Under the pieces are notes generated by a model. It worked only from the letters and a program-made list of their open reading frames with translations, was not told the DNA's origin and did no database searches. Below, in pieces: positions 10,420-13,135 of a stretch of 64,000 nt of DNA. The stretch lies in NCBI RefSeq assembly GCF_030819275.1, contig NZ_JAUTBL010000002.1, positions 250,501-314,500 of the forward strand, in the 5' to 3' direction. Position 1 is the stretch's first letter. Each line of letters begins with the position of its first letter. Origin of the DNA: Agrobacterium larrymoorei. GTDB lineage: Bacteria; Pseudomonadota; Alphaproteobacteria; Rhizobiales; Rhizobiaceae. Made by a program: the position numbers and the translations under genes.

Positions 10420-13135
10420 TTGACGGACGTTCATTCCACCGCCTCGCTCATCTCCGAAGAGAGCCGCGCATCGGCAACGCCGATGATGGAGCAATATATC
10501 GAGATCAAGGCGAACAATCCCGGTTCGCTCCTTTTCTATCGCATGGGCGATTTCTACGAGCTGTTCTTTGACGATGCGGTAGAAGCCTCGCGCGCTCTCG
10601 GCATCACGCTCACCAAGCGCGGCCAGCATATGGGCCAGGACATCGCCATGTGCGGCGTGCCGGTCCATGCGGCGGATGACTATCTGCAGAAGCTGATCAT
10701 GCGCGGCTATCGCGTCGCCGTTTGCGAACAGGTGGAAGACCCGGCAGAAGCCAAGAAGCGCGGCTCGAAATCGGTGGTCAAACGCGATGTGGTGCGTCTC
10801 GTCACGCCGGGCACGCTCACTGAAGAAAAGCTGCTTTCGCCGACCGAATCCAACTACCTCATGGCGCTTGCGCGCATTCGCGGCAGTTCGGAGGCGCAGT
10901 TTGCGCTTGCCTGGATCGACATTTCTACCGGCGTTTTCCGCTTGGCGGAGACGACATTGACGCGGCTGCTCGCTGACATCTGGCGCATCGATCCACGCGA
11001 GTTGATCGTGGCCGACAGCCTGTTTCACGACGAAGAATTGAGACCGACCTTCGATGTGCTAGGTCGTGTAGCTGTGCCGCAGCCTGCGGTCCTCTTCGAT
11101 AGCGCCACGGCGGAAGGTCGCATCGCGCGCTACTTCAACGTCTCGACGCTGGATGGCTTCGGAACCTTTTCCCGCGTCGAACTGGCAGCCGCCGCTGCCG
11201 CTGTCGCCTATGTCGAGAAGACTCAGATCGCTGAGCGCCCGCCTCTCGGCGCGCCGGAGCGCGAAAGCTGTGCCTCGACGCTGTTCATCGATCCCGCCAC
11301 CAGAGCCAATCTCGAGCTGACCAAGACGCTTGCCGGAGAGCGCGATGGATCGCTCCTGCAGGCGATCAACCGCACGGTCACCGGCGGCGGTGCGCGGCTT
11401 CTTGCGGAGCGGCTGATGTCACCGCTGACCGATCCTGAACGGATCAATGCCCGCCTCGATGCGGTCGCCTATCTGATCGACGATGTGTCCTTGAGCGATG
11501 GCCTGCGTGAGGCGCTGAAACAGGTGGCAGACATGCCGCGTGCGCTTTCACGCCTGGCGCTCGACCGTGGCGGGCCGCGCGATCTCGGTGCCATCCGCCA
11601 GGGACTTTACGCTGCCCGCATGGTCGGCCAATTGCTCGATCAGGGACTGTTGCCCGATGAACTCGCGGCGGCACTCTCCGACCTGAAGGCGTTGCCTTCC
11701 GCGTTGGAAACCATGCTGTCCGAGATGCTGGCAGAGGATCTGCCTCTTCTCAAGCGCGACGGCGGCTTTGTTCGCGAAGGCTCCAACCCCGAGCTTGACG
11801 AAGTCCGGGCACTCCGCGACCAGTCGCGCCGGGTCATTGCCGGGTTGCAACTGCAATATGCCGAAGAGACGGGCATCAAGTCGCTGAAGATCAAGCACAA
11901 TAATGTGCTCGGCTATTTTATCGAAGTGACGGCTGGCAATGCGGATGTCATGACCGGCAGCGACGAGGCCAAGGCGCGCTTCATTCACCGCCAGACGATG
12001 GCAGGTGCCATGCGCTTCACCACCACCGAGCTCGCCGATCTGGAAAGCCGCATCGCCAATGCCGCCGCCCAGGCGCTGACCATGGAATTACAGGCGTTCG
12101 ACCGGATGGTGCAGGCGGTGGTTGCGGAGGCCGAAGCCATCAAGGCGGGCTCTCTGGCACTTGCTGCCATCGACGTGGCAACGAGCCTTGCGCATCTGGC
12201 ATCCGAACAGGCCTATTGCCGCCCGGTGGTCGACGGATCCATGACCTTTGCGATCCGAGGCGGCCGTCACCCGGTGGTGGAACAGGCGCTGCGCCGTCAG
12301 TCGAGCGGTCCTTTCATCGCCAATAATTGCGATCTTTCGGCGGTCAACGGCAATCGCAACGGTGCGATCTGGATGCTGACCGGTCCGAACATGGGCGGTA
12401 AGTCGACCTTCCTGCGCCAGAATGCCTTGATTGCCATCCTCGCCCAGATCGGTTCCTTCGTGCCGGCAGAGGCAGCCCATATCGGCATTGTCGATCGTTT
12501 GTTTCTCGCGCGTCGGCGCCTCTGACGATCTCGCCCGCGGCCGCTCGACCTTCATGGTCGAAATGGTCGAGACGGCGGCGATCCTCAATCAGGCGACCGA
12601 GCGTTCGCTCGTCATTCTCGATGAGATCGGGCGCGGCACGGCGACCTTCGACGGTCTGTCCATTGCCTGGGCGACGGTGGAGCACTTGCATGAGGTGAAC
12701 CGCTGCCGTGGTCTTTTCGCCACCCATTTCCATGAACTGACGGTGCTGTCTGAAAAGCTCGGACGTCTCTCCAACGTCACCATGAAGGTGCGGGAATGGG
12801 AAGGCGACGTGATCTTCCTGCATGAGGTTGGTCCCGGTGCCGCGGATCGCTCCTATGGCATTCAGGTGGCCCGCCTTGCCGGCCTTCCTGCCGCCGTGGT
12901 GGAGCGCGCGCGCGAGGTTTTGAACCAACTCGAAGATGCCGATCGCAAAAACCCGGCGAGCCAGTTGATCGACGACCTGCCGCTGTTTCAGGTCGCGGTC
13001 CGGCGCGAAGCGGCAAGTGCCAAGGGCAACTCGAAGGTGGATGAGGCGTTGAAGGTGCTGAACCCGGACGAAATGACGCCGCGCGAGGCACTGGATGCGC
13101 TCTATGCGCTCAAGAAACAACTTGGCAACGCTTGA
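10420..13135 (+). pseudogene. mutS: DNA mismatch repair protein MutS, interrupted by a +1 frameshift
   Basis: MutS recognises mispairs and uses its ABC-type ATPase to recruit MutL. The first frame runs to a stop at 12523-12525 and holds the mismatch-recognition motif (RMGDFYELFFDD), the core and clamp domains and Walker A (TGPNMGGKST, about 12379-12408). The conserved sequence after IVDRLF then continues one frame over (FSRVGASDDLARGRSTFMVE) through Walker B (LVILDEIGRGTATFDG), the switch histidine (ATHFHEL) and the C-terminal dimerisation tail to 13135. One extra T in the TTT at 12502-12504 explains everything: removing it restores a full MutS. Read literally the product lacks Walker B. A sequencing or assembly error is possible. 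The start is uncertain: TTG 10420 fits family length, and the frame is open back to 10273. Confidence 0.9.

What the first reader, a model, noticed from the sequence alone, without database searches (positions are those of the whole stretch)
12495..12525. mutS is broken by a single-base insertion between Walker A and Walker B
The MutS reading frame is intact from the N terminus through TGPNMGGKST, reaches IVDRLF and then runs into LARRRL-stop. The true continuation (FSRVGASDD, then the DEIGRGT Walker B) is one frame over. Removing one T from the TTT at 12502-12504 rejoins the two. If real, the strain would lack mismatch repair and be a mutator; if not, it is a base-calling error in an otherwise clean window. 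No other core gene here is broken.
Basis: seen in the sequence. Interest (0 to 1): 0.75.

Follow-up and report, generated by a model that had tools for sequence, protein, structure and literature searches.

The report
False mutS break at assembly seam
The mismatch-repair gene mutS of this Agrobacterium looks broken by one extra base, but the break sits at a 500-base mark of the assembled sequence, as do nine other single-base breaks found in the same chromosome, so it is almost certainly a stitching error of the assembly software and not a mutator strain.

Summary
The break is really in the deposited sequence: the mutS frame stops at 12525 and the rest of the protein continues one frame over to 13135, with no residue lost. 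The genome is an Agrobacterium; 38 of 38 other genomes of its genus have mutS in one open frame.

It is most likely an assembly artefact. In 760 genes (778 kb) compared with one relative, 13 frame changes passed a both-sides-coding filter; 11 are one-base gains, and 10 of those, mutS included, lie within 9 bases of a multiple of 500 in contig coordinates. Chance is about 7e-14; 0 of 5000 random sets did as well at any period from 100 to 2000. In the relative's own coordinates the same sites show no such clustering (1 of 9). This is what a consensus polisher working in 500-base windows would leave at its seams.

The biology agrees: the part of mutS beyond the break shows 37 silent and 0 amino-acid differences from the nearest relative, and the lineage shows no long-lived mutator signal. 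Reads were not available, so the cause is inferred.

The parts
10420..12525 (+). First part of mutS as deposited: domains I-IV and the start of domain V with Walker A, ending at a false stop (start by comparison with 904-residue relatives; the mechanical ORF begins at 10273)
12495..12510 (+). Place of the one-base offset; contig position C2:263002, two bases from a multiple of 500
12500..13135 (+). Rest of mutS one frame over: remainder of domain V with Walker B and the C terminus

Best explanation
The extra base in mutS is an assembly artefact. A consensus sequence was polished in consecutive 500-base windows and where the windows were joined an extra base was sometimes kept; one such seam falls inside mutS. 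The living strain most likely carries an ordinary, intact mutS and has working mismatch repair. Shown: the break, its place at a 500-base mark, nine further one-base gains at such marks, intact copies in relatives. Inferred: that windowed polishing is the cause, and which program (Racon, and PacBio's Quiver/Arrow, use 500-base windows by default: recalled).
For: Of 13 frame changes with coding-like sequence on both sides in 760 genes, 11 are one-base gains and 10 of these 11 lie within 9 bases of a multiple of 500 in contig coordinates (binomial 7e-14 for 10 of 11, 2e-12 for 10 of 13). No other period from 100 to 2000 does it, and 0 of 5000 random sets reach ten at any period. In the relatives' own coordinates the same sites do not cluster: 1 of 9 in G008, 0 of 3 in G004. 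One-base gaps with gap-free flanks, coding or not: extra bases near 500-marks 14 of 79 against G008 (3.0 expected, p 2e-6) and 5 of 41 against G004 (1.6 expected, p 0.02), at flank identity 0.8 or more; in the relatives' coordinates 6 of 79 (p 0.08) and 0 of 41. Beyond the break mutS has 37 silent and 0 amino-acid differences to G004 in 208 codons. 38 of 38 genus relatives are intact. VeChat's methods describe non-overlapping 500-base windows and point for details to their reference 15, which the same paper names as Racon (PMC9636371, passages).
Against: No reads or assembly record were seen. The period was noticed on the same events that are counted, though the random sets allow for any period. 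Looser counts are weaker: with a laxer gap rule extra bases near 500-marks are 31 of 465 against G008 (19.5 expected), and the same 465 sites give 31 in G008's own coordinates too, so that count shows nothing; against G004 it is 10 of 103 (4.3 expected) and 2 of 103 in G004's coordinates. Missing bases show a slight excess too, 8 of 97 against G008 (3.7 expected, p 0.03). One of 4 frame changes found in the control genome G008 also falls on a multiple of 500, and 10 of 13 against 1 of 4 is not a significant contrast (Fisher p 0.10). The filter dropped 140 changes unexamined. Only 1.2 Mb of one contig was looked at.
Confidence: 0.97

Rival explanations
1. The frameshift is real and very recent: the sequenced culture lost mutS and is a mutator, and its place two bases from a 500-mark is coincidence.
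For: No second gene with MutS domain V in this genome, so a true break would abolish MutS-dependent repair. mutS loss is a known route to natural mutators (recalled; PMC5296598 and PMC8875331 seen in a listing only). A recent loss would leave no decay and no substitution signal, as observed.
Against: A chance place within 9 bases of a 500-mark has probability 0.038, while the assembly has about 0.6% of compared coding seams with such a gain and mutS spans six seams. By eye (no count made) most of the ten gains are not in long single-base runs, where mismatch-repair defects mostly act (recalled). The fourfold-site counts on the two branches are alike: 1418 Ts and 1370 Tv here, 1313 and 1405 for G004.
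Confidence: 0.02
2. Full-length MutS is still made by programmed or leaky +1 ribosomal frameshifting at the junction.
For: The two frames meet with no residue lost, and the part beyond the break shows purifying selection.
Against: 38 of 38 genus relatives read through in one frame. The next codon, CTC, is common in the compared genes (27 per 1000), and no stop codon sits there. Nine other genes have the same kind of gain with no common four-base word (by eye), and the ten share only the 500-marks.
Confidence: 0.005
3. A diffuse base-calling error, unrelated to any window seam.
For: Single-base errors that split genes are common in long-read assemblies (PMC12007338, passages).
Against: The position: ten of eleven coding-side gains at 500-marks. 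No one-base loss that I judge to be in a gene of this genome alone.
Confidence: 0.005

Closest known systems
Gene-fragmenting indel errors of long-read assemblies (e.g. as in PMC12007338, passages)
   Same: A one-base indel that splits a conserved gene which relatives keep whole.
   Different: Here the errors are nearly all gains and sit at multiples of 500 of the contig; that paper's passages link errors to homopolymers and base context. I saw no paper on gains at polishing-window seams, but searched only (listings).
Natural mutS mutators, e.g. a marine Vibrio with a mobile element in mutS (PMC5296598, listing only)
   Same: A mutS reading frame that is interrupted.
   Different: There the interruption is in the cell and reversible; here there is no evidence that it exists outside the assembly.
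MutS of Agrobacterium cavarae RZME10 (L003 / G004)
   Same: 98% identical over the first part; 0 amino-acid differences in 208 codons of the second.
   Different: One uninterrupted frame.

Membership tests
Bacterial MutS | Pfam domains I-V | tested here: met
   All five found, domain V split over two frames.
Bacterial MutS | Walker A (TGPNMGGKST) and Walker B (DEIGRGT); motif names recalled | tested here: met
   Both present, in different frames as deposited.
Bacterial MutS | One uninterrupted reading frame | tested here: not met
   Frame ends at 12525 as deposited; met in 38 of 38 genus relatives.
Seam artefact of a polisher with 500-base windows | Place at a multiple of the window length in contig coordinates | tested here: met
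   C2:263002; 10 of 11 gains within 9 bases of such marks.
Seam artefact of a polisher with 500-base windows | Same kind of change recurs at other seams in unrelated genes | tested here: met
   Nine other genes; eight scanned, all of different families.
Seam artefact of a polisher with 500-base windows | Raw reads do not carry the base | not testable with these tools
   No reads held.
Natural mismatch-repair mutator | Raised mutation rate or mutator spectrum in the lineage | tested here: not met
   Branch counts alike; this cannot see a very recent loss.

The most novel reading that the evidence does not exclude
The strain truly lost mutS very recently and is a natural mutator of an Agrobacterium species near A. 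cavarae, the 500-base position being coincidence.
Probability: 0.02. Interest if true: 0.3.

Novelty: not a real feature. Interest (0 to 1): 0.07.

Why it matters
It removes a false claim of a mutator strain, and it gives a quick check: before a gene of such an assembly is called broken by one base, see whether its contig coordinate is near a multiple of 500. If the rate seen here (10 per 778 kb of compared genes) holds over the 4.88 Mb, some 50 to 60 reading frames of this genome are falsely split (my extrapolation). If the break were real after all, the strain would be a natural mutator.

Tried and rejected
Second MutS gene as a backup: none found with domain V in this genome or in the 38 relatives.

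Programmed +1 frameshifting: rejected for lack of conservation and a common codon at the site.

Long-lived mutator: rejected by branch substitution counts.

Looser frame-change counts came first and were full of false cases, mainly ORFs called too long at the 5' end and ORFs on the wrong strand (one search gave 19 changes against G004, 11 gains and 8 losses, and 25 against G008, 10 gains and 15 losses). therefore asked for coding-like third-position change on both sides. It dropped 140 changes in G000 and 116 in G008, which I did not examine one by one.

Of the 13 G000 changes kept, three are not near a 500-mark: C2:238397, a loss that G004 shares; C2:286603 (window 36103), a loss between two ORFs; C2:599126, a gain which by eye lies just before a start codon. 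Three of the ten near-mark gains (mutS, C2:377002, C2:443504) were seen against both G004 and G008; the other seven against G008 only.

The intersection of one-base gaps seen against both relatives was too small to help: 4 extra bases, 2 of them near 500-marks; 2 missing bases, 0 near.

Identity of the strain: not settled. PMC10281164 (whole text) reports an Agrobacterium near A. cavarae as a 32-contig draft of 4.78 Mb; PMC12697177 (passages) reports drafts of 15 contigs or more for its A. cavarae rows. Neither fits two contigs of 4.88 Mb. A search for mutS, Agrobacterium, mismatch repair and mutator gave 19 papers, 18 listed; no title or abstract start there is about an Agrobacterium mutator (listing only).

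Full report
What is there. The window is C2:250501-314500 of a genome of 4.88 Mb in two contigs. The closest named mutS is that of Agrobacterium cavarae RZME10: 98% protein identity over the first part and 90.5% DNA identity over 400 bases around the break. The mutS frame is open to a stop at 12523-12525; the rest of the protein lies one frame over, to 13135. Pfam domains I-IV and positions 1-45 of domain V are in the first frame, positions 44-188 of domain V in the second. Against solved MutS chains the pieces meet at residues 660/661, so a single-base offset is all that parts them.

Relatives. 38 of 38 other genomes of the genus have mutS in one open frame of 912-968 codons without a stop, and each has one complete domain V match; this genome alone gives two partial ones. 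In 109 of 109 non-self loci the stretch has one base fewer than the window (the loci overlap in source). The 120 closest proteins listed, of 8000 scored, are 883-965 residues long; none listed is truncated. No second domain V gene was found in any of the 39 genomes. The mutL family domain lies in an open frame of 644 codons.

Is the gene decaying? Beyond the break 208 codons show 37 silent and 0 amino-acid differences to G004 (A. cavarae). Before it, 693 codons show 182 silent and 16 amino-acid differences. The gene was under normal selection up to now, which fits an error or a very recent mutation.

Is the lineage a mutator? At 28,503 fourfold sites of 180 genes, with G008 as outgroup, the branch to this genome has 1418 transitions and 1370 transversions, that to G004 1313 and 1405. 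No long-lived mutator shows. A very recent one cannot be excluded this way.

Other frame changes in this assembly. I compared 1.2 Mb of this chromosome (C2:165001-1365000) with 1.13 Mb of a relative, G008, and part of it with 400 kb of G004. The early counts were noisy. The final one asked for coding-like change on both sides: in 760 genes (778,095 bases; 152 aligned in detail) it gave 13 frame changes, 11 one-base gains and 2 one-base losses; 140 more changes with one side not coding-like were dropped unexamined. The other way round, with G008 as target, 766 genes (780,459 bases; 166 aligned in detail) gave 4 changes and 116 were dropped.

The pattern. In contig coordinates the 11 gains are at 263002 (mutS), 377002, 443504, 599126, 705498, 798001, 857999, 937501, 1011998, 1032502 and 1094509. 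Ten lie within 9 bases of a multiple of 500; the eleventh, 599126, by eye lies just before a start codon. The two losses are not near a mark; one is shared with G004, the other lies between two ORFs. The binomial chance is 7e-14 for 10 of 11 and 2e-12 for 10 of all 13. With any period from 100 to 2000 allowed, 0 of 5000 random sets reached ten, and only the period 500 does so for the real set.

Controls. In the relatives' own coordinates the ten sites do not cluster: of the 9 that blastn finds against G008 1 is near a 500-mark, of the 3 against G004 none. For all one-base gaps with gap-free flanks of at least 0.8 identity, coding or not, extra bases near 500-marks are 14 of 79 against G008 (3.0 expected, p 2e-6) and 5 of 41 against G004 (1.6 expected, p 0.02); in the relatives' coordinates they are 6 of 79 (p 0.08) and 0 of 41. 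Missing bases are 8 of 97 (3.7 expected, p 0.03) and 2 of 49 (1.9 expected). A laxer gap rule gives 31 of 465 against G008 (19.5 expected), but 31 of 465 in G008's coordinates as well, so that looser count has no weight; against G004 it gives 10 of 103 (4.3 expected) and 2 of 103 in G004's coordinates. One of the 4 frame changes of G008 lies exactly on a multiple of 500 (C1:1874500), and 10 of 13 against 1 of 4 is not a significant contrast (Fisher p 0.10). The case thus rests on the coding-filtered gains and the flank-filtered gaps.

The genes hit. Eight of the nine other genes were scanned in their intact G008 copies: a TPR/methyltransferase protein, UDP-galactopyranose mutase, a HAD hydrolase, an HxlR regulator, a CbtA-family protein, a sensor histidine kinase, a glyoxalase-superfamily protein and an M17 aminopeptidase. 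The ninth (C2:1011998) runs across two fetched stretches and was not scanned. They share no family; they share the 500-base marks.

Explanation. A polisher that cuts a draft into 500-base windows and joins the results can leave an extra base at a seam. VeChat's methods describe non-overlapping windows of 500 bases and refer for details to their reference 15, which the paper names as Racon (PMC9636371, passages). That Racon and PacBio's Quiver/Arrow take 500-base windows by default is recalled, not read here. About 0.6% of the compared coding seams carry such a gain (10 per 1556), and mutS spans six seams, so a hit in mutS is unremarkable. Indel errors that split genes in long-read assemblies are described in PMC12007338 (passages).

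Verdict. The split is almost certainly a seam artefact, and the living strain most likely has an intact mutS. This rests on position and comparison; no reads were available.

Noticed in passing
G000 C2:377002, 443504, 705498, 798001, 857999, 937501, 1011998, 1032502, 1094509 (outside the window): Nine other conserved genes of this chromosome are split by a one-base gain within 9 bases of a multiple of 500; intact copies exist in G008. Annotation of this assembly will call them pseudogenes.
   Followed up: partly
G008 C1:1874500: One of four frame changes found in the control genome falls exactly on a multiple of 500; chance or a similar seam.
   Followed up: no
L151 and its neighbour, G004 C12 about 350484: A 730-codon G008 ORF meets two frames in A. 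cavarae RZME10 here; not near a multiple of 500.
   Followed up: no
window 36103: One-base loss relative to G008 in the gap between the ORFs 34819-36015 (-) and 36156-36668 (+); looks like ordinary intergenic change.
   Followed up: partly
G000 C2 around multiples of 500: Missing bases also show a slight excess near 500-marks against G008 (8 of 97, 3.7 expected, p 0.03), so some seams may lose a base as well.
   Followed up: no
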